From assembly GCA_947073495.1 (NCBI GenBank), contig CAMTMX010000016.1, positions 1-44,764 on the forward strand: a DNA stretch of 44,764 nucleotides. The letters run 5' to 3'. Below, in pieces: positions 25,069-44,764 of this stretch. Source of the DNA: an uncultured Porphyromonadaceae bacterium (lineage in GTDB: Bacteria; Bacteroidota; Bacteroidia; Bacteroidales; Muribaculaceae). The translations under genes were made by a program, and so were the position numbers. The notes under the pieces were generated by a model that saw nothing but the letters and a program-made list of their open reading frames with translations, was not told where the DNA came from and searched no databases. Positions within the stretch are counted from its first letter, which is position 1, and the number at the start of each line of letters is the position of its first letter.

Positions 25069-25280
25069 ATCTGGTTAAGCAAAAAAATTAAGTTTTCATG
25101 ATGATTTTTCACATACAAGGATTCAAAGAATCCCTGCCCGACAGTTTCATGAATTTTATAAAAATGTTTTTCATTTGCAAATTTAAAATATCTTTTCGAT
25201 AAAATCCAAATATTTAATTATGATTTAACAACCCACTGATCTTTTATATCCTAAATGTGATTAAATATGAAAAAAAGTAT

Positions 25281-25289
25281 TATATTTGC
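25281..25289 (+). promoter_or_regulatory. -7 box upstream of the Rpn-type nuclease
   Basis: TATATTTGC at 25281-25289 fits the Bacteroidetes -7 consensus and lies 26 bp before the preferred ATG at 25315. The -33 position (around 25256-25260, TGTGA) is a weak match. Confidence 0.5.
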
Positions 25290-25314
25290 ATTATAATTCA
25301 ACGCATTGAAAAAT

Positions 25315-26238: not shown

Positions 26239-26277
26239 AGTTCGTTCCTTAAAATTTCAAGAGATTCAAGATTATTA

Positions 26278-26309
26278 TTGCGGATTTAAGTATTTTTTGC
26301 TAACTTTGC
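26278..26309 (+). promoter_or_regulatory. Promoter of the pyr operon leader
   Basis: TAACTTTGC at 26301-26309 is a good -7 box and TTG at 26278-26280 lies 20 bp upstream. Transcription would begin near 26315 and run through a 200-nt leader before pyrC. Confidence 0.65.
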
Positions 26310-26325
26310 ATGCAAAATAAATGAA

Positions 26326-27796: not shown

Positions 27797-27828
27797 TTAC
27801 TCCACCCTTGTATTGGGGAATACGTTAT

Positions 27829-27904
27829 GAAGTCATTTAAACTTTTTTCTTTTTAAGAAAAAACATAAGAAAATCAATCTCCGCAAAAAAGTTTAAATGG
27901 CTTC
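27829..27904. repeat. 20-bp-arm hairpin between pyrC and carA
   Basis: GAAGTCATTTAAACTTTTTT (27829-27848) and AAAAAAGTTTAAATGGCTTC (27885-27904) are inverted repeats with only one non-Watson-Crick (G-U capable) position. A smaller TTTTT/AAAAA stem lies in the loop. It fills half of the 161-bp gap. It may be a mobile hairpin or a processing/termination signal inside the operon. Confidence 0.75.
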
Positions 27905-27957
27905 AAAAAACGCAAAACAATCGGTCTACAGTAAAAAAGATTATATAAGCTAAAAAG

Positions 27958-29046
27958 ATGAAGCCTTACACAAAAAAACTTGTGCTTGAAGACGGACGGG
28001 AGTTCCCCGGAATCGGATTCGCGTCTGACTCTGAAAGGGTTGGAGAATTGGTATTCAACACCTCCATGGTTGGATATCAAGAAATTTTGTCTGACCCTTC
28101 TTATGCCGATCAAATTATCGTGATGACATATCCTCTCATCGGTAACTACGGCATAACCGATGAAGATTATGAAACGAAATTCCCTTCAATCGGCGGCATG
28201 ATTGTGAAGGAAAACAATGATTCACCTTCAAACTTCCGATACACAAAAACACTCGCGGAAGTGCTTGAAGAAAACAACATTCCTGCCATCAGCGGCATTG
28301 ACACAAGAATGCTTACCCGCATTCTTCGGGATGCCCAAGGAATGAGGGCGATCATAACAGACATCGACACTCCTACCGAAGAAGCGGTTAAGAAAATCAA
28401 ATCGGTTGAAAGACCGACAAACCTTGTCAGCAAAGTGAGCTGCAAGAAACGCTGGTTCGCACGTACAGCCAATTACAAATATGACATCGTGGCGATCGAC
28501 TGCGGAATGAAGTATAACATGGTCAGAAGCCTTAACGCACATAATTGCAACGTGACAGTCGTGCCCTGGAACACTACAGCCGAACAAATCATGGCGTTCA
28601 ATCCAGACGGCGTCTTGATATCAAACGGTCCGGGGTCGCCGGAAGATGTGCCTGAAGTAGTGGAGACAATACGACAGTTGCGCGGCAAAGTACCCATGTT
28701 TGGCATTTGTCTCGGACATCAGCTTATAGTGCTCGCATATGGTGCAAAAATCGGCATAATCAATCCGGGGCATCGAGGAGGCAATCATCCTGTCAAAGAA
28801 TTAAAGACAGGGAAAGTGCTCATCACTTCCCAAAATCATGGATATGCAGTGGAAGAGGAATCTGTAATACAGACACCCCTCTCAATCACCCACGTCAATC
28901 TTCTTGACAATACGGTAGAGGGTTGCGAATGTCTTGACGACAAGGTGATTTCCGTGCAGTTTCATCCGGAAAGCGCACCCGGTCCTCAAGATACAATCTA
29001 CCTCTTCGACCAGTTTATAAAAATGATTCCCGAAGTCAAGAAATGA
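27958..29046 (+). CDS. carA: Carbamoyl-phosphate synthase, glutaminase subunit
   Basis: This 362-residue protein hydrolyses glutamine to feed ammonia to CarB. Its N-terminal domain (KLVLEDGREFPGIGFAS, NTSMVGYQEILSDPSY, GIDTRMLTRILR) is followed by a class I glutamine amidotransferase domain. That domain has the nucleophile in MFGICLGHQL and the His-Glu pair in VQFHPESAPG. It is followed 42 bp later by carB. The enzyme supplies carbamoyl phosphate for pyrimidines here and arginine elsewhere. Confidence 0.95.
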   Translation: MKPYTKKLVLEDGREFPGIGFASDSERVGELVFNTSMVGYQEILSDPSYADQIIVMTYPLIGNYGITDEDYETKFPSIGGMIVKENNDSPSNFRYTKTLAEVLEENNIPAISGIDTRMLTRILRDAQGMRAIITDIDTPTEEAVKKIKSVERPTNLVSKVSCKKRWFARTANYKYDIVAIDCGMKYNMVRSLNAHNCNVTVVPWNTTAEQIMAFNPDGVLISNGPGSPEDVPEVVETIRQLRGKVPMFGICLGHQLIVLAYGAKIGIINPGHRGGNHPVKELKTGKVLITSQNHGYAVEEESVIQTPLSITHVNLLDNTVEGCECLDDKVISVQFHPESAPGPQDTIYLFDQFIKMIPEVKK

Positions 29047-29088
29047 CTAAAGGGACGTAGACATTAATTATTTAAAAGGAAAAAGACA

Positions 29089-32000
29089 ATGCCGAAACGT
29101 AAGGATATAAAGAAAGTAATGGTTATCGGATCCGGTCCGATTGTTGTCGGACAGGCTGCCGAATTTGACTATGCCGGCACTCAAGCCTGCACTGCACTGA
29201 AGGAAGAAGGGTATGAAGTTGTTCTTGTCAATTCAAACCCCGCCACTATAATGACCGACCCGGAGATAGCTCATAAAGTATATATGGAGCCTCTCACCCT
29301 TGAATATGTGGCAAAGATAGTGCGATATGAACGTCCCGACGCAATCGTACCCGGACTCGGAGGTCAGACCGGTCTTAATCTTGCGGTGCAACTTGCAAAA
29401 AAAGGCGTCCTTGAGGAATGTGGAGTCGAGATCCTCGGCACGTCGTTTGAAAGTATTGAACGTGCGGAAGACCGTGAACTTTTTAAGGAACTCTGTGAAA
29501 GTATAGGCGAACCGGTGCTTCCAAGCGACGTGGCAAACAGTATAGAACATGCCGTGGAGATTGCCAATAAAATCGGTTACCCGGTTATTCTACGACCTGC
29601 CTTCACCCTGGGAGGGACAGGAGGTGGTTTTGCTGACAACGAGGAGGAACTTCGTGAACTCATGCGCACGGCACTCGACTTATCTCCGGTGCATCAAGTG
29701 CTTGTTGAAAAAAGTATCAAGGGATTCAAAGAAATTGAATTTGAAGTGATGAGGGATGCCAACGATACTGTCATCGCCATCTGCTCAATGGAAAATCTTG
29801 ATCCTGTGGGAGTACATACCGGAGATTCCATCGTTGTAGCCCCGGCACAGACTCTTTCCAATAAAGAATATCAACTGTTGCGCGACAGTGCCCTCAAACT
29901 CATTCGCGCCCTCAAAATCGAAGGTGGCTGCAATGTGCAGTTTGCGCTCGATCCCTTGTCTTTCGACTATTATCTTATTGAGGTGAACCCTCGGGTATCC
30001 CGATCTTCCGCTCTTGCATCAAAAGCTGCAGGATATCCGATCGCCAGAGTGAGTGCAAAAATAGCAGTAGGTCTTCACCTTGATGAAATAGATCTCGGTC
30101 ACGTTCCGGCAAGTTTTGAACCGACAATTGATTATGTGGTTTCAAAAATAGCCCGTTTCCCATTCGACAAATTTGCAGACGCCTCCAACGAACTCGGCAC
30201 CCAGATGAAAGCTACAGGAGAAGTGATGAGCATAGGAAGGACAATGGAGGAATCGCTTCTTAAAGCCGCGCGTTCTCTTGAAACAGGTGTGTGTCATCTG
30301 TATCACAAGAAATTCGACCTGATGACCACTGAAGAGATGCTCGACTATATCCAAAAGGCGACCGACGACCGGATCTATGCACTTGCAGAACTGCTCCGTC
30401 GTGATGTCGATGCCGGAATTATATACAACCGCACCAAAATCGACATGTTCTTCCTTGATAAAATCAAGAACATCGTTGACTTCGAAAAAGTGGTCAAGGC
30501 AAATCCCATGGATGAAACGGTTTTGCGCGATGCAAAGGTGATGGGATTCAGCGATAAATTCATCGGTCAGCTATGGCATAAATCTGAATCTGAAATATAT
30601 CTGCTGAGAAAAAAATATGGCATCCGTCCGGTCTATAAAATGATAGATTCCTGCGGCGCGGAGTTTCATGCCAAGACAAATTATTTTTATTCTTCTTACG
30701 AATGGGAAAACGAATCGATACCTACCGATCGTAAAAAGATAGTGGTTCTCGGATCAGGACCAATCAGAATCGGACAAGGTGTGGAATTCGATTATTCCAC
30801 AGTCCATGCCATCTGGTCAATACGCAAAGCCGGCTACGAGGCAATTATTATAAACAATAATCCGGAAACCGTATCTACCGACCACACTACGGGCGACAAG
30901 CTATACTTCGAACCGCTCACTGTTGAAGACGTGATGAACGTGCTTGACCTTGAAAAACCCGATGGTGTGATTGTATCGCTCGGAGGTCAGACTGCTATAA
31001 ATCTTGCAGAACCGCTTGCCGCTCTCGGGGCACCGATCATCGGCACAAATATAGATGCCATCCGAAATGCCGAAGACCGTGGATGTTTCGAGGCTATCAT
31101 GGAAAAACTTCAGATTCCGCAACCGGAAGGTGTGGCTGTCACTCACATTGAAGACGGAGTGAAAGCAGCTGAAAGAATCGGTTATCCTGTGCTCGTCCGT
31201 CCAAGCTACGTTTTGGGCGGAAGGGCAATGCAGATTGTAAGCAATGAGGAGCAGCTTCGACATTATCTCCACACTGCTGTTGAAATCAATGTCGAACATC
31301 CTGTGCTTGTCGATAAATATATCATGGGCAAAGAACTCGAAGTCGACGCCATATGCGACGGAGAGAATGTATTTGTGCCCGGGATCATGGAGCATGTGGA
31401 ACACACCGGTGTACACTCAGGTGACTCGATCAGCGTCTATCCCACTTTTAGCGTGAGCCAGAAAGCGAAACAGACAATTCTTGATTATACCGTCCGTCTT
31501 GGCAAGGAAATCGGCATAAAAGGACTTTATAATATACAATTTATTGTAGATAGCAAGGAAGATGTATACGTGATTGAGGTAAATCCACGTTCTTCTCGTA
31601 CAGTACCTTTCATTTCGAAGGCAACCGGAGTGCCTCTAGCACACATCGCCACCCAGGTGATGCTCGGACAATCTTTACCTGAACAAGGCATCGACCGTCT
31701 GTATCCGGAAGAGAAGAAACGATGGTTTGTAAAGACTCCCGCGTTCTCTTTTGCGAAACTTCGCGGCATGGACTCTTATCTCTCCCCTGAGATGAAGTCT
31801 ACCGGTGAAGCTATCGGATATGACAAGTCGCTTAAGCGTGCCCTTTACAAATCGCTTCAGGCTTCCGGGATGACAGTCGCAAACTATGGAACTGTCTTCG
31901 TCACTATAGGAGATTCCGACAAACAACGTGCCCTTCCATTGATCAGACGTTTCTATCAACTCGGATTCAACATTGAAGCGACAAGAGGCACTGCGGAATT

Positions 32001-32274
32001 CCTGCGGTCTCACGGGATACGCACCCGTTTGCTACGCAAGTTGAGCGAAGGATGCTCTGATATTGTCGATTCCTTGCGTCAGGGTCACGTGAATTATGTG
32101 ATCAACACAATGGAATTGAGCGCTGACCACTCGCACCGTGACGGATATTATATCCGAAGGGCAGCCGTCGACAACAACATAACGGTTTTCACTTCTCTCG
32201 AGACTGTAGAGGTACTGCTCGATGTGCTTGAAGACATAACCATGAAAGTCTCAACCATCGATGCTGAAGATTAA
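29089..32274 (+). CDS. carB: Carbamoyl-phosphate synthase, large subunit
   Basis: This 1061-residue protein has the duplicated ATP-grasp architecture of CarB. The first half begins [20 protein letters not shown] and contains [16 protein letters not shown]; the second begins [20 protein letters not shown] and contains [14 protein letters not shown]. The C-terminal 140 residues form the MGS-like regulatory domain ([19 protein letters not shown]), where UMP or ornithine bind in homologues. Length is close to the family norm (about 1070). It assembles carbamoyl phosphate from bicarbonate, ammonia and two ATP with CarA. It lies 9 bp before pyrK. Confidence 0.96.
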
Positions 32275-32283
32275 CCTTAGATT

Positions 32284-33036
32284 ATGAAAATAAAAGGCAA
32301 CTACACCATCATCAGCAACCGTCGTCTCACCCACAAGACCTGGGTGATGACGCTCGGTGGCGACACAAGTGCGATTACCGCACCGGGACAATTTGTAAAC
32401 ATCGAAATCCCCGGCAAATACCTTCGCCGACCCATCTCGATATGTGATTATTCACACGAGAGGGGCGAGATTGTGCTTTTATATGACGTGGTAGGTGACG
32501 GCACCTCAGCCATGAGTAAAATGAATCAGGGAGATTCTGTCGATATGCTCATCGGTCTTGGCAACGGATTTTCCCTTGAATCCGGAGCTGAACGCCCACT
32601 CCTTCTCGGGGGTGGCATCGGATGCGCCCCACTCCTGAATCTTGCACGTGCACTGAAACGTATCGGCAAAAATCCAATTGCCATACTTGGATACAACAAC
32701 GCCGCCGACAGCTTCGGTATGGACAAATGGTTTGAAGAAATCGGAGTCGAGGCTTATATCGCTACGGTTGACGGCTCTGTCGGCACAAAAGGATTTGTGA
32801 CAGACGTTATCCGTGAGAAGAATATAAATGGAGATTATTTCCATGCCTGTGGTCCGATGCCCATGCTTAAGGCGCTATGCAATGGGCTTGACATTCCGGG
32901 GGAAGTAAGTATAGAAAGCCGTATGGGGTGCGGATTCGGGGCTTGCATGTGCTGCAGCGTCGAGACCCGCGACGGTTCTAAGAGGATTTGCAAAGACGGT
33001 CCTATATTCAGAAAGGAGGAATTGATATGGAAATAA
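32284..33036 (+). CDS. pyrK: Dihydroorotate dehydrogenase electron-transfer subunit
   Basis: This 250-residue FAD and [2Fe-2S] protein passes electrons from PyrD (class 1B) to NAD+. FVNIEIPGKYLRRPISICDY is the RxYS-like FAD motif, LLLGGGIGCAPLL binds NAD, and GCGFGACMCCSVE plus the later ICKDGP supply four Cys in CX4CX2C...C spacing for the cluster. It overlaps the pyrD start by 10 bp, consistent with stoichiometric complex formation. Confidence 0.93.
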   Translation: MKIKGNYTIISNRRLTHKTWVMTLGGDTSAITAPGQFVNIEIPGKYLRRPISICDYSHERGEIVLLYDVVGDGTSAMSKMNQGDSVDMLIGLGNGFSLESGAERPLLLGGGIGCAPLLNLARALKRIGKNPIAILGYNNAADSFGMDKWFEEIGVEAYIATVDGSVGTKGFVTDVIREKNINGDYFHACGPMPMLKALCNGLDIPGEVSIESRMGCGFGACMCCSVETRDGSKRICKDGPIFRKEELIWK

Positions 33037-33953
33037 ATAAATCTTCACTCAACCTTTCAGTCTCTCTAAGCGGAGTTACTCTTCAGAATCCGGTCGTGCC
33101 TGCCTCAGGATGTTTCGGATTCGGCTACGGGATGGCGGAGTTCTACGACATTGACATCCTGGGGTCTATATCATTTAAAGGGACTACGCGCGATTCCCGG
33201 TTCGGCAACCCACTTCCACGTGTGGCTGAGTGCAGCTCAGGTCTGATAAATTCAGTAGGTCTTCAAAACCCCGGCATCGACACTGTGATTGCAGAAGAAC
33301 TCCCAAAAATGCGGGAAGTTTTTCATCAGCCGATCATTGCCAACATCAGTGGTTTCTCTATCGATGAGTATGTGGAATGCTGTGAGAAAATCGATAAGGA
33401 AGAGCAGGTGGCGATTATTGAGCTGAATGTCAGCTGTCCGAACGTACACGGAGGTGGTATGAGTTTCGGCACCTGTTGCGATTCTGTGGCAGAGGTCGTC
33501 AAGGAAGTAAAAAAGGTTGTCACCAAACCTCTTTATGTAAAGCTCACTCCAAATGTGACAGACATTGTTTCTATCGGCAAATCCGCGGTAGAGGCAGGTG
33601 CTGACGGGCTATGCCTTATCAACACGCTTCTCGGAATGCGTATCGACATAAAGACTCGCCGTCCCGTGGTCGCCAACCGCATGGGAGGGTTCTCCGGTCC
33701 GGCAGTGTTCCCGGTAGCCGTAAGGATGGTCAATCAGGTAGCTCACTCTTGTGGTGTGCCGGTAATAGGATGTGGAGGCGTATCCTCCGCAGCGGATGTG
33801 ATCGAAATGATGATGGCGGGAGCGACCGCAGTGGAAGTCGGCGCAGCCAATCTTGTAAATCCCTACGCCTGCAAGGAGATAGTGGAGAACCTTCCAAAAG
33901 AGATGGAGCGTCTCGGGATCAATTCCCTCTCCGAAATCATCGGCATAGTCTGA
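33027..33953 (+). CDS. pyrD: Dihydroorotate dehydrogenase, class 1B catalytic subunit
   Basis: The preferred ATG at 33027 gives a 308-residue protein (MEINKSSLNLSVSLSGV); the upstream non-ATG extension from 32988 lies inside pyrK. It is an FMN TIM barrel: PASGCFGFGYGMAE, KGTTRDSRFGNPLPR, ELNVSCPNVHGGG with the active-site Cys of class 1 enzymes, and GCGGVSSAADVIEM for FMN phosphate. The adjacent pyrK makes it class 1B, NAD-linked. It oxidises dihydroorotate to orotate in the cytosol. Confidence 0.95.
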   Translation: MEINKSSLNLSVSLSGVTLQNPVVPASGCFGFGYGMAEFYDIDILGSISFKGTTRDSRFGNPLPRVAECSSGLINSVGLQNPGIDTVIAEELPKMREVFHQPIIANISGFSIDEYVECCEKIDKEEQVAIIELNVSCPNVHGGGMSFGTCCDSVAEVVKEVKKVVTKPLYVKLTPNVTDIVSIGKSAVEAGADGLCLINTLLGMRIDIKTRRPVVANRMGGFSGPAVFPVAVRMVNQVAHSCGVPVIGCGGVSSAADVIEMMMAGATAVEVGAANLVNPYACKEIVENLPKEMERLGINSLSEIIGIV

Positions 33954-34034
33954 CAACCAATAAAAAAGGAGCCTTTGACTGGAACCTTTAATAATAATAA
34001 TAATTTCGAAACAAAAACTCCCAACTAACAAGAT

Positions 34035-34745
34035 ATGAATGCAAAAGACGTTATAATCGCATGCGATTTCGGCTCTGCCGACGCCTGTCTCGCTTTTCTC
34101 GACAAATTCAAAGACGAGGAGCGTAAACCTTTTTTGAAGATCGGCATGGAGCTATATTATGCCGCCGGTCCTGAAATCGTGAAAGAACTCAAAAAGCGCG
34201 GTTTCAAAATTTTTCTCGACCTCAAGCTTCATGACATACCAAACACCGTGAAGAAAGCTATGAAGGTGCTTTCAAATCTTGATGTGGATATGGTCAATGT
34301 GCATGCCGCCGGCACAATCGAGATGATGCGCGCCGCTCTTGAAGGGCTTACTCGTGAAGATGGCACCCGTCCGCTTCTTATAGCTGTAACCCAACTCACC
34401 TCCACCTCTGAAAAGGCTATGCGTGAACAACTTTTGATTGATGCATCAATCAACGACACCATTGCCAAATATGCCCGTAATGCAAAGGAAGCCGGTCTTG
34501 ACGGCGTAGTTTGCTCTCCCCTTGAGGCAAGCCTTGTAAAAGAGGCATGCGGCAACGAATTCATGACAATCACTCCGGGAATACGATTCGCCGATTCCAA
34601 GGCAGATGACCAGGTCCGTATCACCGACCCTGCGAAAGCCCGAGAAATAGGATCTGACTATATCGTTGTAGGTCGTCCTATCACGGCTGCGGAAGATCCT
34701 GTCGCAGCCTACAAACGTTGCGTGAAGGATTTCCTCGCGCTTTAA
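34035..34745 (+). CDS. pyrF: Orotidine-5'-phosphate decarboxylase
   Basis: This 236-residue TIM-barrel enzyme makes UMP from [23 protein letters not shown] opens the barrel, [16 protein letters not shown] holds the catalytic Lys-Asp tetrad, and [14 protein letters not shown] binds phosphate. It belongs to the short PyrF class rather than the longer (about 270-residue) form I associate with many Bacteroidetes, in keeping with the clostridial look of this operon. An 81-bp gap precedes it. Confidence 0.94.
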
Positions 34746-34855
34746 CCTGTAAAATAGTTTAGGGTTGAAGGTTTATAGTTTATGCTTTAAGAGTAATCTT
34801 ACAACATACAACATTAAACCCACAACCCACAACCTCACATCTCAAAACATACAAC

Positions 34856-35491
34856 ATGGAAACTGCAAAAAAAGTAGCCGCCGAACTTCTCGGCATCAAG
34901 GCTGTATTTCTCAGCCCCGCAAAGCCGTTCACTTGGGCAAGCGGTATAAAAAGCCCTATCTACTGCGACAATCGCCTCATCCTCACAGCACCCAAAGCTC
35001 GTAAGGTTGTTGAAGAGGCTATTGCAAAAACCGTACAGGAAAAGTTCCCTGAAGCTGAAGTGCTCATGGGCACAAGCACTGCAGGTATCGCACATGCAGC
35101 TATCGCAGCCTGGATTCTTGACAAACCAATGGGATATGTCCGCGGCGGCAACAAAGACCATGGACGCGGCAACCGTATAGAGGGGAAACTCGAACCCGGG
35201 CAGAAAGTAGTTGTCATTGAAGATCTCATCTCTACTGCCGGCAGCTGTATCGAGGTTGTTGAAGCTCTTCGTGAGGCAGGGGCAGATGTGCTTGGAGTAG
35301 TAAGCATCTTCACTTACGGAATGCAGAAAGGTCTTGATCGTCTTGCAGCTGCAAACGTGACCAACTACTCGCTCTCTAATTTCAACACTCTTTGTGAGGT
35401 GGCTGTAGAAGAGAAATACATCACCCCGGAGGAGGAAGTACGCTTGAAAAAATTCATGGCGAATCCTTCAGATGAATCCTGGATGGCATAA
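34856..35491 (+). CDS. pyrE: Orotate phosphoribosyltransferase
   Basis: This 211-residue type I phosphoribosyltransferase joins orotate and PRPP to OMP. FTWASGIKSPIYCDNRLI is the N-terminal substrate region, GYVRGGNKDHGRGN the catalytic flexible loop, and VVVIEDLISTAGS the PRPP-binding motif. It sits 18 bp before pyrB. A 110-bp gap before it contains repeated 'acaac' words but no recognisable terminator. Confidence 0.95.
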   Translation: METAKKVAAELLGIKAVFLSPAKPFTWASGIKSPIYCDNRLILTAPKARKVVEEAIAKTVQEKFPEAEVLMGTSTAGIAHAAIAAWILDKPMGYVRGGNKDHGRGNRIEGKLEPGQKVVVIEDLISTAGSCIEVVEALREAGADVLGVVSIFTYGMQKGLDRLAAANVTNYSLSNFNTLCEVAVEEKYITPEEEVRLKKFMANPSDESWMA

Positions 35492-35509
35492 ATCCTAAAT
35501 ATCAAAACA

Positions 35510-36598
35510 ATGAAGCATCTTATCGATCCCACCGATCTCTCCAAGCAAGAGCTTGAAGAAATCATCGACCTCGCGCTCGACATAATCGACAACAGGGAGA
35601 AGTATTCAGAAGTGTGCAAGGGCAAGAAACTCGCCACTCTCTTCTATGAGCCTTCCACCCGCACAAGACTCAGCTTCACTTCCGCCATGATGGAGTTAGG
35701 TGGAAACGTGCTTGGGTTTTCAGATGCGAAAAACACGTCTGTAAGCAAGGGTGAGACTTGTGCCGACACCACTAAAGTGATCAACTGTTTCGCCGATATT
35801 ATCGCCATGCGTCACTTTGAGGAAGGTGCCGCGACTGTTTCTGCAATGAATTCCAGGATTCCGGTGATCAATGCCGGTGACGGCAGCCACAGCCATCCCA
35901 CCCAGACTCTAACCGACCTCCTCACTATCAAACGTGAGATCGGACGCTTCGACAACATCACAATCGGTTTTTGCGGCGACCTTAAATTCGGTCGTACTGT
36001 CCACTCCCTAATCAAGGCTCTTTCCCGCTATAAAGGAGTGAAGGTGGTTCTTATCGCTCCGGAACAGCTTCGTCTTCCCGACTATATGAAACAGGAAGTG
36101 TGTGAGATGAACGGAGTGCCTTACAAAGAGGTAGACACTATGGAAGAAGTTATGGGAGAGCTCGATGTCCTCTATATGACCCGCGTCCAAAAAGAGCGTT
36201 TCTTCGACGAAGACGAATACGACCGCGTAAAAGACTTCTTTATCCTTGATGCGGAGAAACTTAAAGATGCACGCCCCGAGATGCGCATTCTTCATCCCCT
36301 TCCCCGTGTCAACGAGATCAGCACAGACGTAGACTCTGATCCGCGTGCAGCCTATTTCCGTCAGGTTGAGAATGGTAAGTTTGTACGCATGGCACTCATT
36401 GTCAAACTTCTCGAATGGGCAAAAGATCCGAATAAGACAACAGAATTGGTTCCGGCAGATGCTGTCCGCAACAAATACATTTGCCGCAACAAACGCTGCA
36501 TTTCCAACATGGAAGTCGGCGTAGACAGCCTCTTCCGTCCTGCACACGACCATTCCGGCGACTACCGCTGCGTCTACTGCGAATCCAAACCGAAATAA
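35510..36598 (+). CDS. pyrB: Aspartate carbamoyltransferase fused to a PyrI-type zinc domain
   Basis: Residues 1-310 are a full catalytic chain. [12 protein letters not shown] is the carbamoyl-phosphate loop, SVSKGET the 80s loop, [14 protein letters not shown] the substrate site, and [16 protein letters not shown] the 240s-type segment. Residues 320-362 add YICRNKRC (Cys325, Cys330) and CVYC (Cys354, Cys357). The CX4C-23-CX2C spacing is exactly that of the zinc domain of E. coli PyrI, the regulatory subunit. The allosteric nucleotide-binding domain of PyrI is missing. No separate pyrI lies in the window. The fusion could let the zinc domain hold catalytic trimers together without effector control. 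Confidence 0.93.
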
Positions 36599-36791: not shown

Positions 36792-36986
36792 AAACTCTTA
36801 AGTTATCAAAAGACAGACACTATTTTTCGAACAACATATTATTTTGCCACTCATTATATCTCCAGAGGAGATCGGACTGCAGATCAGATGATTCAGGCTG
36901 CAAGAAGCGGTAAACAAAATATCATTGAAGGTTGTGCCGCTGCATCTACGTCTACTAAAACCGAAATTCATCTTCTTAGAGAATGT
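36792..36986 (+). pseudogene. Truncated four-helix-bundle (S23-like) gene remnant
   Basis: The open frame reads LLSYQKTDTIFRTTYYFATH, then SRGDRTADQMIQAARSGKQN and EGCAAASTSTKTEIHLL. This clearly matches the N-terminal two-thirds of Bacteroidetes four-helix-bundle proteins (the 23S rRNA-intervening-sequence/Avd-like family). A stop directly precedes it with no start codon in frame. Similarity ends near 36986, before the tracrRNA terminator begins at 37020. It appears broken at its 3' side by the event that brought the CRISPR locus here. Confidence 0.65.
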
Positions 36987-37019
36987 TTGGATTTGACTTA
37001 TGTTAAGAGCGCGTTCCTT

Positions 37020-37113
37020 AAAAAGACAAGAGAGAAAACCTTTCGGTTCTCCCTCTTCAAATGTTTTCACAACGGAATAATCCTTATTGTGATTTGCATA
37101 GAATTATTTTTGC
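37020..37113 (-). ncRNA. Predicted tracrRNA of the type II-C system
   Basis: Read on the minus strand, 37113-37086 (GCAAAAATAATTCTATGCAA then ATCACAAT) is an anti-repeat. It pairs with the first 32 nt of the repeat in minus-strand orientation through about 28 base pairs with one mismatch and one 4-nt bulge. It is followed by a small GGA/UCC nexus-like hairpin, then AAGAGGGAGAACC-GAAA-GGTTTTCTCTCTT and GTCTTTTT, a rho-independent terminator ending near 37020. Upstream, TTTG (37146-37149 on this strand) and TAACTTAG (37118-37125) sit 20 bp apart, placing the start at about 37113, exactly at the anti-repeat. Length is about 94 nt. It is divergent from cas9. Confidence 0.85.
37035..37082. repeat. 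48-bp direct repeat, left copy (tracrRNA tail)
   Basis: This segment starts AAAACCTTTCGGTTCTCCCT and ends ACGGAATAATC. It recurs at 43454-43501 with a single difference (TTTCGG versus TTCCGG). In this copy it is the central and 3' part of the tracrRNA. The two copies are in the same orientation and bracket cas9-cas1-cas2 and the array. Confidence 0.95.
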
Positions 37114-37163
37114 GCTGCTAAGTTAGTCAATTCTTGTCATTTTACCAAATTTATTGATAATTA

Positions 37164-37195
37164 TTTGTAAAATTGATGTAAAAACTTTATCTTTG
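37164..37195 (+). promoter_or_regulatory. cas9 operon promoter
   Basis: TTTG at 37164-37167, 20 bp, then TATCTTTG at 37188-37195 is a near-ideal Bacteroidetes promoter. The cas9 ATG lies about 65 nt downstream of the predicted start. It diverges from the tracrRNA promoter, which overlaps 37118-37149. Confidence 0.8.
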
Positions 37196-37264
37196 AGGAT
37201 AATTACGGTTTTAAAGCAATAACTTAGTAACTAATTACAAATTATTTTAAAATAAAATAACATC

Positions 37265-40200
37265 ATGAAAATTCTCGGACTTGATCTTGGCGTTGCTTCG
37301 ATAGGATGGGCACTGATAGTAACGGATGAAAATGACATTCCTGTAGAAATTAAAGGATTGGGTAGTAGAATAATTCCATTTGAGTCAGATAAGATCGCTA
37401 CAGAATTTTCTAAAGGAAAAGGCGAGACTGCCTGCAGTGTTCGTACGGGATACCGGCAATTGCGCCGTCAAATTGACAGATGGCAGCTTAGAAGGGAACA
37501 ATTGAAAGGATATCTGCAAAAAAACGGTATCCTTGAAAATGGGGATGGTTGCTTTTCTCATAAAAATCCGTTGGAAATATGGGGAATGAGGGCATCTGCA
37601 GCAAATAAAGATATTGCATTGAGTCTTAATGACCTTGCCGGAGTATTGTTGCATATTAACCAACGCAGGGGATATAAGCATGCGAAATCTGATATAGGTG
37701 ATTCCAAACAGACTGACTATGTCCAAAAGGTAAACGACAGATATAACGAGATACAAAGCCTCGGGATGACAGTGGGGGAATATTTTTATTCGGAGTTGAA
37801 AAAAACTGAAAAGGTATCTTTGTCCGGTAAAAAGCATTATACTTTCCGGATTAAAGAAAAGGTGTTCCCAAGAAAAGCCTACGAAGAAGAGGTTGACCGG
37901 ATTTTATCCGCCCGGCAGTTACATTATCCGGAGATACTGACAGATGAGGTGGTTGCAGAAATAAAGAGAATAATGTTTTATCAGCGACCGTTGAAATCAT
38001 GCAAGAATCTTGTCTCATATTGTGATTTTGAAAGAAGACAATTTAAAAACGGTCAGGGGATATTGGTTGACAGTGGACCCAAGGTCAGTCCCCGTACCTC
38101 TCCGCTTTCACAGGTGTGTAAAATATATGAATCCATCAACAATATATCATTGATAAATCAAAGATATAGGAACAGAAAGGAATTTGACAGTTTATTTTCG
38201 GATCTGGAGGGAGGTATGCTTTCAATGGATGCACGCAAACATGCCTACAAATATCAGTTTACCGACGAGGAGAGGGAAAGAGTGTTTGAATTTTTAAACA
38301 CACATGACAAAATGTCGGAAACCGATCTCTTGAAATTATTGGGATTGAAAAAATCAGATGGATTTAAGAGTGATAAATCATTAGGGAAAGGGATACAGGG
38401 AAACACCACCAGGATGGCGATTGCAAATGCATTTGCCGGCGATGAAAAATATGAATCTTTGTTGCGCTTTGATATTGTAACGGAAAATAAGGTTGATTCC
38501 CTGACAGGGGAAATCAAGGAAGAAATATCTCCGGAATATCAGAAAGAACCACTTTATATGTTATGGCATACGTTGTATTCCATTGATGACAAAGAGGAAT
38601 TGTTTCACACTTTACGTGAAAAGTATGGCATTAAGGATGATGCCATACTCGAACGTCTGTATGGGCTCGATTTTGTCAAGGCTGGATATGCCAACAAATC
38701 AGCAAAATTCATGAGAAAACTGTTACCTTGGCTTATGAAAGGCTGCATGTATAGCGAGGCATGTAAGAATATAGGTGTCAACCACAGCAACTCTCTGACA
38801 AAGGAAGAAAATTCAGACAGGGCACTTTTGGCACGGCTTGAACCGGTATTAAAAGGGGAATTACGCCAGCCGATAGTTGAAAAAATTCTCAATCAGATGG
38901 TGAACCTGGTAAACACCTTGATCGACCGGTATGGTGAAATTGATGAGGTGCGTGTAGAACTTGCCCGCGAGCTGAAACAGAACAAGGAGCAAAGGGAAAA
39001 GACGAGCAGCGCGCTTAAAACGCGTGAGGACGATAATAAGAAGTTGGCAGAAGAGATAAGTCAGCTCAATATTCTTCCTACCAAACGCCGCATACAGAAA
39101 ATGCGTATGCTCAAGGAGTCGGGATATAAATGTATATATTGCGGCGCTCAAGTGTCGCCATATCAGTTTATAGAGGGACACGGGTATGACATAGAGCATA
39201 TTATCCCGCGATCAAGATTGTTTGACGATAGTTTTTCCAATAAAGTGTGCTCTTGTCGTGAATGTAATGCAGCCAAGGGCGGGAGCACTGCTTATGATTT
39301 CATGAAGGGGCGCTCCGGACAGGATTTTTCCTCCTATTGTGAAAGAGTGGAAACATTATATAAGGATGGCAGCATATCGAAAGGGAAGAGAGACAGGCTT
39401 TTTATGTCGGCAGAAGAGATTCCGACCGATTTTATTGAACGCGATCTACGTCAGACGCAATATATCTCTAAAAAAGCGATGGAGATTCTACGCCAGTCTA
39501 TACGGAATGTCTATGCGTCATCCGGATCGGTTACTGATTTCTTTCGTCATGCATGGGGATACGACTCAATTCTCCAAGACCTTAACTTTACAAAATATGA
39601 GAAAGCAGGTCTGACAGAGAGTGTCAAATACGAGCATCACGGGCAGCAACATGAAACAGTCAGGATCAAGGAATGGTCAAAACGTAAAGACCACCGCCAT
39701 CATGCCATAGATGCTCTTGTAGTGGCGTTGACCAGGCAAGGTTATGTTCAGAGATTGAACAGCTTGAACGCTAAATCAATGGAGAGCCGAGAAAAAGGAG
39801 AGGAGAAAGTGGGTCTTGACAAGTGGGCTGCAAGGCAGCCTCATTTCCAGTATTCGCATGTGAAGGATAAAGTGGATGAGATTTCCATATCATTCAAAGC
39901 AGGGAAGAAAGTCAGTACCCCCGGAAAAAGATATGTAAAAAGAGGAGGCAAACGTATATGCGTTCAGACAGGAGTGTCTGTCCCGAGGGCAGCTCTTCAC
40001 AAAGAGACTGTCTATGGGTGTATCAATGTATACGACGGGAAAAAAACATTGAAGTTCGCTCTTCAGAATCTGGATCTTATTGTAGATAAGGAAACCGTAA
40101 ATATTCTAACGAGGGCTCTGGAAGAGAACGGCAACGATGTGGCAAAAACAATGAAGTCGTTTAAGAAAAATCCTCCCATGGTTCATGGAAAAGAGATTGC

Positions 40201-40996
40201 AGATGTGGGTTGTTACAGAAAGGAAATAGTTGTGAAATATCCCATAGAGACAATCCGTAAAAAGGATTTGAAGAGCATTGTCGATCCCCGGATACGGGAA
40301 ATAGTCGGAGAACGGTTTAAGACTGTGGCGAATGACAAGGAGTTTGAGAGGAGCCTTAAGACTGAGCCGCTTTACTCAGATCCTGACAGAACCATGGAAA
40401 TCCGCACAGTGAGATGCTTTACCGGTATTCAACCTGAAACACTTGCTCCTGTCAGAAAGAATGATAAAAATGAAAACATCGGTTTTTCTCAAACCAGAAA
40501 CAATCATCATGTGGCGTTCTATAAGACTCCGGATGGTAAGGATTTGCCTATCGTTGTCAGCCTTTGGGAATGCGTGAAACGTAAACGTTTTGGTTTGCCA
40601 TTGATTGTAACAGACCCGGATAAGGCATGGGACAAAGTCCTGGCGTTGAAAAATCAGAAAGACATAGATGAGCTTGCTGTAAGCTTGCCTCCGGCAGGGA
40701 GTGAATTTGTAACGTCTCTTCAAAGAAATGAAATGGTTGTTCTGGGCATGTCGGATGATGAATGGAGAGATGCCGTTGAATCAAAAGATTATGCAGCATT
40801 GAACCGACATTTGTATAGGGTCTGGAAATTGAGTGGTCCAGTGTATGCTTTTAGATTTCATACGGATACAAATGTAGAGACATCGGAAGAAGGCAGGAGT
40901 ATGAATTTATATTATTTGTTGGCTTCGGTTAAGGCTTTACAGTCAATGAATCCACATAAAGTGAAAATAGATATTCTTGGAAACATAATACTTTAG
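37265..40996 (+). CDS. cas9: CRISPR-associated endonuclease Cas9, type II-C
   Basis: This 1243-residue RNA-guided DNA nuclease has all expected catalytic parts. RuvC-I is MKILGLDLGVASIGW with Asp7. The Arg-rich bridge helix spans residues 57-85 (RQLRRQIDRWQLRREQL). RuvC-II is VRVELAREL with Glu565. HNH is YDIEHIIPRS with His645, framed by cysteines Cys623/Cys626 and Cys662/Cys664/Cys667 that probably bind zinc. RuvC-III is HRHHAIDALVVAL with His813 and Asp816. The HNH residue before His645 is Glu where Asp is common. The neighbours cas1 and cas2, without csn2 or cas4, define subtype II-C. Size is intermediate for II-C. Its C-terminal region should recognise the PAM, which cannot be predicted here. 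Confidence 0.97.
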   Translation: MKILGLDLGVASIGWALIVTDENDIPVEIKGLGSRIIPFESDKIATEFSKGKGETACSVRTGYRQLRRQIDRWQLRREQLKGYLQKNGILENGDGCFSHKNPLEIWGMRASAANKDIALSLNDLAGVLLHINQRRGYKHAKSDIGDSKQTDYVQKVNDRYNEIQSLGMTVGEYFYSELKKTEKVSLSGKKHYTFRIKEKVFPRKAYEEEVDRILSARQLHYPEILTDEVVAEIKRIMFYQRPLKSCKNLVSYCDFERRQFKNGQGILVDSGPKVSPRTSPLSQVCKIYESINNISLINQRYRNRKEFDSLFSDLEGGMLSMDARKHAYKYQFTDEERERVFEFLNTHDKMSETDLLKLLGLKKSDGFKSDKSLGKGIQGNTTRMAIANAFAGDEKYESLLRFDIVTENKVDSLTGEIKEEISPEYQKEPLYMLWHTLYSIDDKEELFHTLREKYGIKDDAILERLYGLDFVKAGYANKSAKFMRKLLPWLMKGCMYSEACKNIGVNHSNSLTKEENSDRALLARLEPVLKGELRQPIVEKILNQMVNLVNTLIDRYGEIDEVRVELARELKQNKEQREKTSSALKTREDDNKKLAEEISQLNILPTKRRIQKMRMLKESGYKCIYCGAQVSPYQFIEGHGYDIEHIIPRSRLFDDSFSNKVCSCRECNAAKGGSTAYDFMKGRSGQDFSSYCERVETLYKDGSISKGKRDRLFMSAEEIPTDFIERDLRQTQYISKKAMEILRQSIRNVYASSGSVTDFFRHAWGYDSILQDLNFTKYEKAGLTESVKYEHHGQQHETVRIKEWSKRKDHRHHAIDALVVALTRQGYVQRLNSLNAKSMESREKGEEKVGLDKWAARQPHFQYSHVKDKVDEISISFKAGKKVSTPGKRYVKRGGKRICVQTGVSVPRAALHKETVYGCINVYDGKKTLKFALQNLDLIVDKETVNILTRALEENGNDVAKTMKSFKKNPPMVHGKEIADVGCYRKEIVVKYPIETIRKKDLKSIVDPRIREIVGERFKTVANDKEFERSLKTEPLYSDPDRTMEIRTVRCFTGIQPETLAPVRKNDKNENIGFSQTRNNHHVAFYKTPDGKDLPIVVSLWECVKRKRFGLPLIVTDPDKAWDKVLALKNQKDIDELAVSLPPAGSEFVTSLQRNEMVVLGMSDDEWRDAVESKDYAALNRHLYRVWKLSGPVYAFRFHTDTNVETSEEGRSMNLYYLLASVKALQSMNPHKVKIDILGNIIL

Positions 40997-40997
40997 C

Positions 40998-41915
40998 ATG
41001 ATTAAGAAGACGATATGTTTCAGCAACAGAGCATTTCTTTCATGTCGGCTGGATCAATTGAAAATAAAAGTTTTTGATCCCGTAACCGGAAAGGAGCAGG
41101 AATTGACAAGACCGATAGAAGATATCGGGGTGATTATTGTGGAAAGTGAGCAGGTCTCGCTCACTTCCGCTTTGATTACAAAACTGATGGAAAATAATGT
41201 TGCCCTGATATTTTGCGATAAAAAACATATGCCGTCAGGACTTGTCTTGCCTCTGGAGGGAAACACTTTGCAATCTGAAAGATTTTCATCTCAAATAAAT
41301 TCGTCGCTCCCGCTAAAGAAACAGTTGTGGCAACAGACAGTAAGTATGAAAATCCGAAATCAGGCAGCGGTGCTGAGTAAAACTTCCGGATGTGAAACCG
41401 GCAACATGTTGTCGTGGGCAAACAGTGTAAAAAGCGGCGATCCGGATAACCTCGAAGGGAGGGCGGCAGCATATTATTGGAAGAATTTGTTTCCTGAATA
41501 TCCTGATTTTAAAAGGGATCGGGAAGATGATGGCATTAATTCACTTCTTAACTACGGATATGCCATATTGCGAGCCATCATAGCAAGAAGCCTTGTAGGG
41601 AGTGGATTGTTGCCTACATTAGGGATTCATCACAAGAACCGTTATAATGCGTATTGCCTTGCAGACGATATAATGGAACCTTTTCGCCCTTATGTCGATC
41701 TTATGGTTATTGATATTTTGAGGAACAAGAAATTGCCGTTGGAAATAAATAAGGAAACCAAGCGATTTCTTCTAACCCTGCCCACAGTAGACGTCAGAAT
41801 GCAGAAAGTGAAGCGTCCGCTCCTTGTGGGAGCATCCATGACAACAGCATCCTTGTCGAAATGCTATATGGGAGAGATAAGAAAAATATCCTATCCTGAG
41901 ATAGATGCGTCATGA
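40998..41915 (+). CDS. cas1: CRISPR integrase Cas1 (type II)
   Basis: This 305-residue protein is the catalytic subunit of the spacer integrase. The metal-binding triad is visible as Glu153 in LEGRAAAYYW, His211 in LGIHHKNRYN and Glu227 in DDIMEPFRPYVD. The N-terminal beta domain precedes (KTICFSNRAFLSCRLDQLKI). It starts 1 bp after the cas9 stop and overlaps cas2 by 4 bp (ATGA). It inserts new spacers into the array at 42369-43259 together with Cas2. Confidence 0.96.
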   Translation: MIKKTICFSNRAFLSCRLDQLKIKVFDPVTGKEQELTRPIEDIGVIIVESEQVSLTSALITKLMENNVALIFCDKKHMPSGLVLPLEGNTLQSERFSSQINSSLPLKKQLWQQTVSMKIRNQAAVLSKTSGCETGNMLSWANSVKSGDPDNLEGRAAAYYWKNLFPEYPDFKRDREDDGINSLLNYGYAILRAIIARSLVGSGLLPTLGIHHKNRYNAYCLADDIMEPFRPYVDLMVIDILRNKKLPLEINKETKRFLLTLPTVDVRMQKVKRPLLVGASMTTASLSKCYMGEIRKISYPEIDAS

Positions 41916-42262
41916 TTGATTATGTATCATATAAACGGGTGAGTTCCTATCAGCTTATGTGGATACTTGTGATGTTTGATTTGCCAACAGAAACGAAAAT
42001 CCAAAGAAAGTTGGCGTCAGATTTCCGGAAATGTCTATTAAAGGATGGATTTACGATGTTTCAATTTTCGATATATGTAAGGAATTGTGCATCGCGGGAG
42101 AATACGAAAGTTCATATAGAAAGGATAAGGAATATAATACCGGAAGAGGGTAAGGTATGTATAATTTCAATAACGGAACGTCAATTTCAAGAAATTTTGA
42201 CATTTGAAGGAAGCCGTCGTTCTTCCAAGATCCCGGATGCCATCCAGCTTGAATTGTTCTAA
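41912..42262 (+). CDS. cas2: CRISPR adaptation protein Cas2
   Basis: This 116-residue protein has the Cas2 ferredoxin-like fold, with ILVMFDLPTETKIQRK at the first strand (conserved Asp) and GFTMFQFSIYVRNC in the middle. The start used (MIDYVSYKRVSSYQLMW) adds a short N-terminal extension typical of type II Cas2. It scaffolds Cas1 dimers during spacer integration. It ends 25 bp before a bidirectional terminator. Confidence 0.95.
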   Translation: MIDYVSYKRVSSYQLMWILVMFDLPTETKIQRKLASDFRKCLLKDGFTMFQFSIYVRNCASRENTKVHIERIRNIIPEEGKVCIISITERQFQEILTFEGSRRSSKIPDAIQLELF

Positions 42263-42286
42263 ATAGAAATAGACAAATAATACCAT

Positions 42287-42316
42287 AAAAAAAGACCGTT
42301 TTCACGGTCTTTTTTT
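42287..42316. terminator. Bidirectional terminator between cas2 and array
   Basis: AAAAAAAGACCGT (42287-42299) and ACGGTCTTTTTTT (42304-42316) are perfectly complementary around TTTC. Seven A on one side and seven T on the other make it work in both directions. It would end the cas operon on the plus strand and array transcripts arriving on the minus strand. Confidence 0.92.
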
Positions 42317-42368
42317 AATTCTACAAATCGCCATAATATGCTTATTATCATATTAATATGCATATCGT

Positions 42369-43259
42369 GGTGTGATTCATAATGCAAAAATAATAAATTC
42401 TAAGCAAATCACAACAAAGCGGTGTTGGCGGCAATCGTATTGAGGGGTGTGATTCATAATGCAAAAATAATAAATTCTAAGCAAATCACAACAAAGCCTT
42501 CCTTGCATTCGCATGACAGAAAGGTGTGATTCATAATGCAAAAATAATAAATTCTAAGCAAATCACAACTCAAGCTCTTTTGAAGAAACTTCCTGTTTAG
42601 GTGTGATTCATAATGCAAAAATAATAAATTCTAAGCAAATCACAACGACGTTTTCAATTTGGATATAATCGGGGTGGTGTGATTCATAATGCAAAAATAA
42701 TAAATTCTAAGCAAATCACAACGCACAATCTCTCATTGACACAGCAAGGTCGGTGTGATTCATAATGCAAAAATAATAAATTCTAAGCAAATCACAACAA
42801 GACGCACCTCTATATTTCAGTTTCCGCAGGTGTGATTCATAATGCAAAAATAATAAATTCTAAGCAAATCACAACGCCCTGCTTCCAATACTCGACGGCT
42901 TCGGCGGTGTGATTCATAATGCAAAAATAATAAATTCTAAGCAAATCACAACGAAAGTTACGACTAACCAAGTGTGCAAGTTGGTGTGATTCATAATGCA
43001 AAAATAATAAATTCTAAGCAAATCACAACGAGCGTCGTGCCGTTGGTGGTACTCGCTATGGTGTGATTCATAATGCAAAAATAATAAATTCTAAGCAAAT
43101 CACAACGAAATTGCTTGCCATGTCGTTGGCGTAGCTGGTGTGATTCATAATGCAAAAATAATAAATTCTAAGCAAATCACAACTTCTCTTATGGTTTATA
43201 AAATAATTTACGGGTGTGATTCATAATGCAAAAATAATAAATTCTAAACAAATCACAAC
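42369..43259 (-). CRISPR. Type II-C CRISPR array, 12 repeats and 11 spacers
   Basis: Twelve 47-bp repeats start at 42369, 42446, 42523, 42600, 42676, 42752, 42829, 42906, 42983, 43060, 43137 and 43213. On the plus strand each starts GGTGTGATTCATAATGCAAA and ends AAGCAAATCACAAC. Spacers are 30 nt except the fourth, fifth and eleventh (29 nt). All repeats are identical but the last, which has AAACAAATC in place of AAGCAAATC. The minus strand is given as transcribed because the anti-repeat at 37086-37113 pairs with GTTGTGATTTGC... on that strand, and repeats of known Bacteroidetes II-C arrays begin this way. The repeat on that strand contains GTTG, 19 nt, TATTTTTGC, a promoter-like pair. No spacer matches anything I noticed in the window. 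Confidence 0.98.
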
Positions 43260-43453
43260 GAGGGCACGATCACAAAAATATGGTCTACTTATTCTATGTC
43301 CCAATATGAAAGGATTGCGAGGTTTATCCATACATTAATTTTTTCAAAAGTAACGTGTTTATTTTAATTATGCAAATCGCATAATGCGATTTGCATAATT
43401 AAAATAATATCTCTGAAAGCCGTTCAAAAAATGAGGGTTCACCACACAAATAT
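43260..43453. other. Array-flanking region with perfect palindrome
   Basis: Between the last repeat and the second tracrRNA-tail copy there is no gene. Positions 43359-43407 form a perfect palindrome with 24-bp arms and a 1-nt centre (TTATTTTAATTATGCAAATC at its left end). Its ATGCAAATC core resembles the tracrRNA anti-repeat. If the array is transcribed on the minus strand this region is its leader side. Confidence 0.7.
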
Positions 43454-43501
43454 AAAACCTTCCGGTTCTCCCTCTTCAAATGTTTTCACAACGGAATAAT
43501 C
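43454..43501. repeat. 48-bp direct repeat, right copy (orphan tracrRNA tail)
   Basis: This copy is 47/48 identical to 37035-37082. On the minus strand it has the nexus region and 5' arm of the terminator, but the anti-repeat is absent and the 3' arm of the terminator is replaced by TTTTATATTTGTG. It therefore should not make a working tracrRNA. It lies 9 bp from the stop codon of the GH127-like gene. Confidence 0.95.
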
Positions 43502-43510
43502 TATAACTCG

Positions 43511-44764
43511 TTATCTCGATTGGTCAGGGTTGTAGACAGGGAAAGTTGTCAATCTTAACGTGGTGCTTCCATAGGGATACAACCTGATCATAGAATGTAT
43601 TGTCTCACCTGATTCGGGATCAGATTCGGCAACAATTTTTGAAGGTAAAGATGGAGTGAATCTATTCTCTACCAAGCCCCAGTCTTTTACTCCGACCACA
43701 GGCACATCTATACTTATCGGAGACTCCCCTTCGTCAAAAGGAAAAGATGAATTTATATGAGAATTGACTTTAACCTTATCAATCGCTCCCATATCTAATG
43801 CATAATTCCATTTTCCTACAGGGACCATATTCCAACTTTTGAAATCGGGGTTACGGGAAACCTTCCCAGCCAGATTATCATATATTGCCGTATCCTCTTC
43901 CATGCTGTAAGGGATGGGGAATGAATATAATATCGGACCTCTTTCCACATATACACCCCCTCCTGCAGATTCTTTGATATTCAAACCCATCGGTAAAGAC
44001 ACTGAAAATGTCTCGCCATTTTTCCACACTTTGCTCACAGTCTTAAACGATGACTTGTCGCCACTAACCCATCCCGGGATTCGATAACTGAATTCCATGG
44101 GGACCTCTCCATCAATCAATTCTCCATTTTTATAGAATTTAAATATAAAATCTATCTTCTCTTCAAACGGATAAGAGGTGCGTTCTTCTATGGATACAGA
44201 CACCCCGTCTTTCAAATCAAACTCTACACTGCTTGGACCATAGAGGGCGGCGACCGGATTCCCGTTTCTATCTTTCATCCACATTCTGGCTGCATAATTA
44301 GGCATATATCTATGCAAATTTCCTATGCAACACTCAGTTTCATGAATCGGGCGATATGCCATCCATGTCAGACCATGCTTGAAATCATTATGATTGGAAT
44401 TTCCGGTGGCAATAAACTGATTAGGGCATGAGAAATATTGCATCGACTTGAAATCTTTTGTAATCGCACCGAAAGCAGCATTGAAAATAGCCTTCTCTAT
44501 GCGATCCGCCCATTCGGCGCCACCTGTAGCCATAAGGTAATAGCCCATAGTCCAGGTGTAATCGCCTATATCGCACGTCTCATGACTGGCAAGGGGATCG
44601 TTACCCGCAAGCGCCTCCGAACTGGAATTCACTCCATCTATAAGCATGTGGTCTCTTTCCATCTTATAGTCAGCTTTAAGGGCAGCTTTAAGACCCCATT
44701 CCCCAATATTTGTTAACGCTGGGGCGGTCAAGCGTCGTGCAGATGTGTTCGCGCAGTGAGGGAG
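43511..44764 (-). CDS. GH127-like beta-L-arabinofuranosidase family protein, 5' end outside window
   Basis: The frame is open through the right edge (an upstream HCANTSARR segment is in frame with LTAPALTNIGEWGLKAAL), so about 417 C-terminal residues are visible and roughly a third of the protein is missing. HETCDIGDYTWTMGYYLMAT and ETECCIGNLHRYMP match DUF1680/GH127-type glycosidases; the adjacent cysteines in ECCIGN are where the catalytic Cys nucleophile and a zinc ligand lie in HypBA1. The C-terminal half is beta-rich (LPMGLNIKES, VYVERGPILYSF). It probably removes arabinose or related sugars from plant glycans. GH146 and other DUF1680 branches are alternatives. Confidence 0.85.
   Translation of the reverse strand, partial: LPHCANTSARRLTAPALTNIGEWGLKAALKADYKMERDHMLIDGVNSSSEALAGNDPLASHETCDIGDYTWTMGYYLMATGGAEWADRIEKAIFNAAFGAITKDFKSMQYFSCPNQFIATGNSNHNDFKHGLTWMAYRPIHETECCIGNLHRYMPNYAARMWMKDRNGNPVAALYGPSSVEFDLKDGVSVSIEERTSYPFEEKIDFIFKFYKNGELIDGEVPMEFSYRIPGWVSGDKSSFKTVSKVWKNGETFSVSLPMGLNIKESAGGGVYVERGPILYSFPIPYSMEEDTAIYDNLAGKVSRNPDFKSWNMVPVGKWNYALDMGAIDKVKVNSHINSSFPFDEGESPISIDVPVVGVKDWGLVENRFTPSLPSKIVAESDPESGETIHSMIRLYPYGSTTLRLTTFPVYNPDQSR

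What the first reader, a model, noticed from the sequence alone, without database searches (positions are those of the whole stretch)
37035..43501. CRISPR-Cas locus bracketed by 48-bp direct repeats of tracrRNA tail
Seen: 37035-37082 and 43454-43501 are in the same orientation and differ at one of 48 positions. The left copy is the body and terminator 5' arm of the predicted tracrRNA; the right copy lacks an anti-repeat and the terminator 3' arm. Everything between them is cas9-cas1-cas2, the array and short flanks, about 6.4 kb. Inference: the copy is the footprint of a duplication, a recombination junction or integration of the whole locus. Homologous recombination between the copies could delete the system in one step, leaving a single tail. 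This gives a concrete mechanism for gain or loss of a II-C locus.
Basis: partly seen in the sequence, partly recalled or inferred. Interest (0 to 1): 0.72.

Follow-up and report, generated by a model that had tools for sequence, protein, structure and literature searches.

The report
Stray tracrRNA tail beside CRISPR locus
A bacterium carries a spare 48-base piece of its CRISPR helper-RNA gene just past the far end of the CRISPR locus; it is most likely a scar of a local DNA rearrangement, not the edge of a mobile unit.

Summary
In detail: 37035-37082 and 43454-43501 are direct repeats, 47 of 48 identical, bracketing a type II-C locus. The left copy is the native tracrRNA tail (RNA on the minus strand). 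The right copy lacks the anti-repeat, lies 9 nt past the stop codon of a GH127-like gene and sits where gene order differs from one relative. The word occurs only twice in this draft genome. The tail core is in 42 of 397 family genomes, once in each except this one. Of 11 relatives' loci with sequence beyond the array, 0 have a second tail. The closest Cas9 found (G228, identical repeat) comes with one tail in its draft, but its contig stops inside the array. Best reading: a scar, private to this genome as far as sampled, of local duplication or template switching at a rearrangement junction. Integration of the locus as a unit is not supported; no empty site for this locus was found; deletion between the copies is plausible but unshown. 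In another family (G531) a tail without anti-repeat lies beside an inserted segment, and G630 shows that site without CRISPR. Of about 155 tails viewed, 5 lack the anti-repeat; one, in a phage contig, resembles a single-guide RNA and is the most interesting lead.

The parts
37020..37034 (-). 3' arm and T-run of the native tracrRNA terminator
   Evidence: fold; sequence
37035..37082 (-). left copy: native tracrRNA tail and terminator 5' arm
37087..37113 (-). tracrRNA anti-repeat (best match to the array repeat outside the array)
37265..40996 (+). cas9, 1243 aa, RuvC_III and HNH domains
40998..41915 (+). cas1, type II (TIGR03639)
41912..42262 (+). cas2
42369..43259 (-). CRISPR array, 12 repeats of 47 nt; the consensus repeat holds TTG-N19-TAnnTTTG on the minus strand; the only variant repeat is the last on the right
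43359..43407 (.). perfect 24-bp inverted repeat in the flank after the array
43426..43437 (-). possible replacement terminator arm (CCCTC then ATTTTTT) for the right copy; weak
   Evidence: fold; not flagged
43454..43501 (-). right copy: tracrRNA tail without anti-repeat
43511..44731 (-). GH127-like gene, its 5' part cut by the contig end; stop codon 9 nt from the right copy
36975..37008 (.). 34 nt of a MITE-like element (by eye) with longer copies in contigs C33 and C55 of the same genome; marks the left edge as another junction

Best explanation
The right copy is a scar, private to this genome as far as sampled. A 48-bp piece of the native tracrRNA gene, from the nexus loop into the terminator stem, was copied 6.4 kb away in the same orientation when the right edge of the locus was joined to the GH127 gene. 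Two routes give the same result: one-step template switching at the junction, or tandem duplication of the locus followed by deletion of nearly all of the second copy. It is not a boundary of a mobile unit and probably has no CRISPR function. Shown: the repeat, its restriction to this genome in the scans made, the lack of an anti-repeat, its place at a gene-order difference. Inferred: the direction of copying and the mechanism. Recombination between the copies could delete the locus, rarely, given 48 bp (inference); no product was seen.
For: Two copies only in the own draft genome. Core in 42 of 397 family genomes, two copies only in this one. Second tail in 0 of 11 relatives' loci with at least 200 nt beyond the array. 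G228, Cas9 76% identical and identical repeat, has one tail in its draft, with anti-repeat and nearly the same terminator, so the left copy is the native one. Of the 68 other distinct 48-nt tails then held, the left copy is nearest (1 difference; G228's next with 3). G336 has the GH127 homologue at the other end of the block collinear with window 23906-36594, facing the other way, with no tail after it. The left edge is a mosaic too: a gene fragment cut by 34 nt of a MITE-like element, neither of which is in the roughly 180 nt seen left of G228's tracrRNA.
Against: The G228 contig ends inside its array (L034), so its right flank was not seen, and a tail could be missing from its draft (about 140 contigs, 96% complete). 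GH127 matched 2 of 111 genus genomes including this one, so the gene-order difference rests on one comparison. No microhomology at the edges singles out template switching. For duplication-then-deletion, no stray repeat remains: the end of the repeat (24 nt, 3 mismatches allowed) occurs in this genome only in the 12 array repeats. The contig ends 1263 bp beyond the copy.
Confidence: 0.6

Rival explanations
1. The locus entered as a unit: a circle carrying cas9-cas1-cas2 and array recombined with a tail already present beside the GH127 gene, leaving direct tail repeats at both ends; the reverse reaction would excise it.
For: Geometry fits (direct repeats exactly bracketing the locus). In G531 a tail is also duplicated, apparently in the same orientation, around another segment (orientation and order inferred across contigs), and G630 has that site without locus or tail.
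Against: No ORF of 90 aa or more between the copies except cas genes and frames overlapping them. 0 of 11 relatives show the second copy. G228 has near-identical tracrRNA and identical repeat with one tail in its draft. GH127's one other genus homologue found has no tail after it.
Confidence: 0.13
2. The right copy is kept for a function: it ends transcription of the GH127 gene, or its RNA binds Cas9 as a decoy or regulator.
For: It lies 9 nt past the stop codon in the gene's orientation, 47 of 48 bases are kept, and a terminator-like stem followed by ATTTTTT can form. Tails without anti-repeat also occur in G531, G442, G826 and a phage contig.
Against: Stem weaker than the native one and not flagged by the consensus scan. 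No promoter of the Bacteroidales type on the minus strand of 43401-43700. Not seen elsewhere at this place.
Confidence: 0.12
3. Assembly artefact: a false join at the tail word, or strain mixture in the source sample.
For: Fragmented draft (183 contigs); the copy is 1.3 kb from the contig end.
Against: The two copies differ by one base, and the right flank is a gene whose homologue lies next to the same gene block in a genus relative.
Confidence: 0.1

Closest known systems
Type II-C CRISPR-Cas locus (cas9-cas1-cas2, tracrRNA upstream of cas9, 47-nt repeats), as in Riemerella anatipestifer (PMC5006608, passages seen)
   Same: Gene set, 47-nt repeat, anti-repeat upstream of cas9
   Different: A second, anti-repeat-less tracrRNA tail after the array; that paper reports no potential promoters in its repeats, whereas the 20 repeats tested here all hold a Bacteroidales-type promoter word
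Remodelled tandem duplications and template-switch junctions with short templated inserts (recalled, no paper seen)
   Same: Short direct copy of nearby DNA at a rearrangement junction
   Different: The copied piece is tracrRNA; the event itself is inferred
Integration at the 3' end of a tRNA gene, leaving a partial 3' copy (recalled, no paper seen)
   Same: Intact small-RNA gene at one end, 3' fragment without its 5' part at the other
   Different: In the window the DNA between is on the 5', cas9 side and no ORF for an integrase was found there; copy edges differ among genomes
Phage-encoded Cas9 with tracrRNA as a proposed anti-CRISPR (PMC10910872, one passage seen)
   Same: tracrRNA outside a host CRISPR locus
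   Different: There a Cas9 homologue is present; for the phage element seen here (L182) no match to the window's Cas9 was found in its record, which may be a fragment

Membership tests
[quoted passage not shown] no csn2 or cas4 | tested here: met
   three cas genes; no other ORF of 90 aa or more between cas2 and the GH127 gene
[quoted passage not shown]
[quoted passage not shown]
   activity needs experiment; catalytic residues were not examined
Mobile unit bracketed by direct repeats | recombinase or transposase inside | tested here: not met
   ORFs of 90 aa or more between the copies are the cas genes and frames overlapping them; name the three as cas proteins; shorter ORFs not examined
Mobile unit bracketed by direct repeats | same bracketing repeats around the unit in relatives | tested here: not met
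   0 of 11 loci; two copies in 1 of the 42 family genomes with the core, this one
Mobile unit bracketed by direct repeats | empty site with one repeat between the same flanks | tested here: inconclusive
   pyrBI neighbours differ in most of seven genomes viewed; GH127 homologue in one other genus genome
Integration at a small-RNA 3' end | element on the 3' side of the intact gene, partial copy at its far end | tested here: not met
   the partial copy lies on the cas9 side
Common intergenic terminator | many copies in the genome | tested here: not met
   two copies only
Functional tracrRNA paralogue | anti-repeat and own promoter | tested here: not met
   no anti-repeat end before it; no promoter word on the minus strand of 43401-43700

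The most novel reading that the evidence does not exclude
Anti-repeat-less tracrRNA tails form a rare recurring class (5 of about 155 tails viewed: this copy, three other bacterial genomes and a phage contig) that are transcribed and bind Cas9 without a normal crRNA, as decoys or, in the phage, as a single-guide RNA; the right copy, in the 3' untranslated region of the GH127 gene, would be a host-borne example.
Probability: 0.08. Interest if true: 0.75.

Novelty: new variant of a known kind. Interest (0 to 1): 0.38.

Why it matters
Tail-sized and repeat-sized scars (this window; G531 and G813 beside one gene, with G630 as the site without the locus) could give a sequence marker of past rearrangement or loss of II-C loci that can be searched in draft genomes. 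For this window itself the result is modest: a probable local duplication scar with a possible, unshown role in deletion of the locus.

Tried and rejected
Scattered terminator: rejected, two copies in the genome. Copy conserved in relatives: not seen in 11 of 11 loci with post-array flank. Of the 27 loci oriented, seven (L039, L046, L050, L055, L017, L005, L026) gave no usable array and were dropped; of the other 20, L034, L038, L043, L048, L051 and L054 were run but have 0-42 nt beyond the array, L045 and L057 have flank but were not run because the script found no tracrRNA anti-repeat, and L047 (17 nt) was not run. Empty site: 94 of 111 genus genomes, this one included, have some match to the left flank, mostly to pyrBI, but among seven downstream regions compared only G213 and G421 share the next genes. 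GH127 matched 2 of 111 genus genomes, one of them this one, at E<=1e-60.

Tail as an attachment site like a tRNA 3' end: considered because G531 and the window share nearly the same 5' edge of the copy; given little weight because my search word starts at that edge, because G442 and G826 have other edges, and because the window's geometry does not fit.

Palindrome 43359-43407 as a relic anti-repeat: 82 of 2000 Markov shuffles of the flank score as well; not convincing.

Other scans: Rfam at gathering thresholds gave nothing. The search for related loci with Cas9 in genome contigs: 59 pattern matches, none confirmed; a 38-mer in genome contigs: none; both may leave out very near records. Plasmid collection: 3 records match the tracrRNA, not followed up. 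Phage collection: no credible match to the tail and none to the L182 stretch. Paper searches, listings only except the passages: I saw no paper on tracrRNA tail copies flanking a locus; the library holds open-licence papers only.
Full report
OBSERVATION. A 22-base core occurs twice in the window and in 0 of 100 shuffles, with 3 mismatches allowed. In the 3.5-Mb draft genome only these two copies are found.

ANATOMY. The locus is type II-C: cas9 (1243 aa), cas1, cas2, then 12 repeats of 47 nt. The anti-repeat is at 37087-37113, and the tracrRNA runs leftward on the minus strand through the left copy into a 13-bp terminator stem. The only variant repeat is the last one on the right, so the right end is probably the old (trailer) end (inference). 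The 20 consensus repeats tested (this one and 19 from relatives) all carry TTG-N19/20-TAnnTTTG on the minus strand, against a mean of 0.05 of 20, largest 2, in 500 mononucleotide shuffles. The repeats are related, so these are not 20 independent cases. The word fits the recalled Bacteroides promoter consensus and suggests promoters inside repeats.

THE RIGHT COPY. In RNA sense it is preceded by the end and stop codon of a GH127-like gene and 9 nt, not by an anti-repeat. It lacks the native 3' terminator arm; a weaker stem with CCCTC and ATTTTTT downstream is possible, but the stricter scan finds no terminator there. Of the 68 other distinct 48-nt tails then held, the nearest is the left copy (1 difference), then G228's (3).

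RELATIVES. Cas9 relatives were found in 51 of 397 family genomes at E<=1e-50 and 14 of 111 genus genomes, this one included in both. Of the loci fetched, 11 with a recognised tracrRNA have at least 200 nt beyond the array; none has a second tail (scores at most 32, against 92 in the window). The tail core (2 mismatches allowed) is in 42 of 397 family genomes, two copies only in this one; in 116 of 393 order genomes, two copies in five (this one, G442, G531, G644, G686); and, with the word one base shorter, in 59 of 395 class genomes, two copies in four (this one, G442, G501, G1066). The samples overlap. The only other genome with two hits on one contig is G501: two-mismatch hits on opposite strands 164 kb apart, of which the one viewed has no tail features. 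Pairs on separate contigs of drafts cannot be placed; those of G644, G686 and G1066 have ordinary anti-repeats.

ANTI-REPEAT-LESS TAILS. Among 159 distinct sites in the loci held by then (not all places listed; a few sites near locus ends may count twice), 150 have the anti-repeat end and 9 do not. Four of the nine look like chance hits by eye (L198, L214, L216, L217). The other five are the window's right copy, G531:C27, G442:C81, G826:C26 and the phage contig L182.

GENE ORDER. G336 is collinear with window 23906-36594, but its GH127 homologue lies at the other end of that block and faces the other way, with no tail after it. The right copy is thus at a gene-order difference, resting on one genome. 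In G228 the pyrBI contig ends, and the CRISPR contig begins, in the same kind of repeat, which suggests but does not prove that the locus was already beside pyrBI.

A PARALLEL CASE. In G531 a tail with terminator and flank, 77 bp and 90% identical to that genome's own tracrRNA tail but without anti-repeat, lies after a winged-helix-like gene (my label, recalled; no family search). In G630 that gene is followed by DNA that in G531 lies just after the array (76% over 1325 bp), so in G531 the CRISPR locus lies between the two, and other DNA now separates the gene from the locus, with the tail on both sides. This assumes that G531's contigs C27 and C4 belong to one region, which is inferred. In G813 the same gene is followed by a single CRISPR repeat, 46 of 47 identical to G531's once its insert is left out of the count. 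G811, G812, G814 and G712 show no relic there; G775 and G815 gave no match to that gene. Scars of tail or repeat size thus occur at sites where II-C loci have changed.

TRACRRNA WITHOUT A LOCUS. G212, G023 and G042 carry a tracrRNA (G042 with a decayed anti-repeat) but no cas match or array in the 19.0, 11.0 and 10.0 kb around it, and are not among the 51 genomes with Cas9. If these are remnants, loss of the system can leave the anti-repeat too, which recombination between tails would not.

MECHANISM. The evidence supports a local duplication scar at a rearrangement junction. One-step template switching and tandem duplication with later deletion cannot be told apart; that no stray repeat is left in this genome leans slightly against the second.

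VERDICT. Observation confirmed; footprint idea supported; integration of the locus as a unit not supported; deletion untested. Modest in itself, useful as a pointer to searchable scars.

Noticed in passing
L182:8109-8294 (viral contig IMGVR_UViG_2903131571_000001): About 1 kb from terminase genes: a repeat-like word, about 25 nt of possible guide, then a fused short repeat and anti-repeat hairpin, a nexus with two extra hairpins, a tracrRNA tail and a terminator: a candidate phage single-guide RNA. No match to the window's Cas9 in the 53-kb record nor to the cas queries in the part held. The last 10 nt of the guide match beside one tracrRNA (L130), one of 8 hits in the held loci, so this may be chance.
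   Followed up: partly
G531:C27 and C4, G813:C25, G630:C6 (L166, L167, L193, L172): One gene is followed by a lone tracrRNA tail in G531, a lone interrupted CRISPR repeat in G813, and no CRISPR relic in G630.
   Followed up: partly
L162, L192, L194 (G042, G023, G212): tracrRNA genes with no cas match or array in the 10-19 kb held around them.
   Followed up: partly
window 42369-43259 and 19 related repeats: Bacteroidales-type promoter word inside each repeat tested (20 of 20).
   Followed up: partly
window 36975-37008; G000 C33 and C55; G413 C537: MITE-like element of about 170 bp with inverted ends (by eye); 34 nt of it remain at the left edge of the locus.
   Followed up: partly
L088 (viral contig IMGVR_UViG_3300013936_000003): tracrRNA with anti-repeat about 200 nt from an integrase gene; no match to the window's Cas9 in the record.
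   Followed up: partly
L168 (G442:C81) and L239 (G826:C26): Tails with terminator and no clear anti-repeat; G442's lies near genes matching phage transcription-regulator families.
   Followed up: no
window 43359-43407: Perfect 24-bp palindrome after the array with weak likeness to the anti-repeat.
   Followed up: partly
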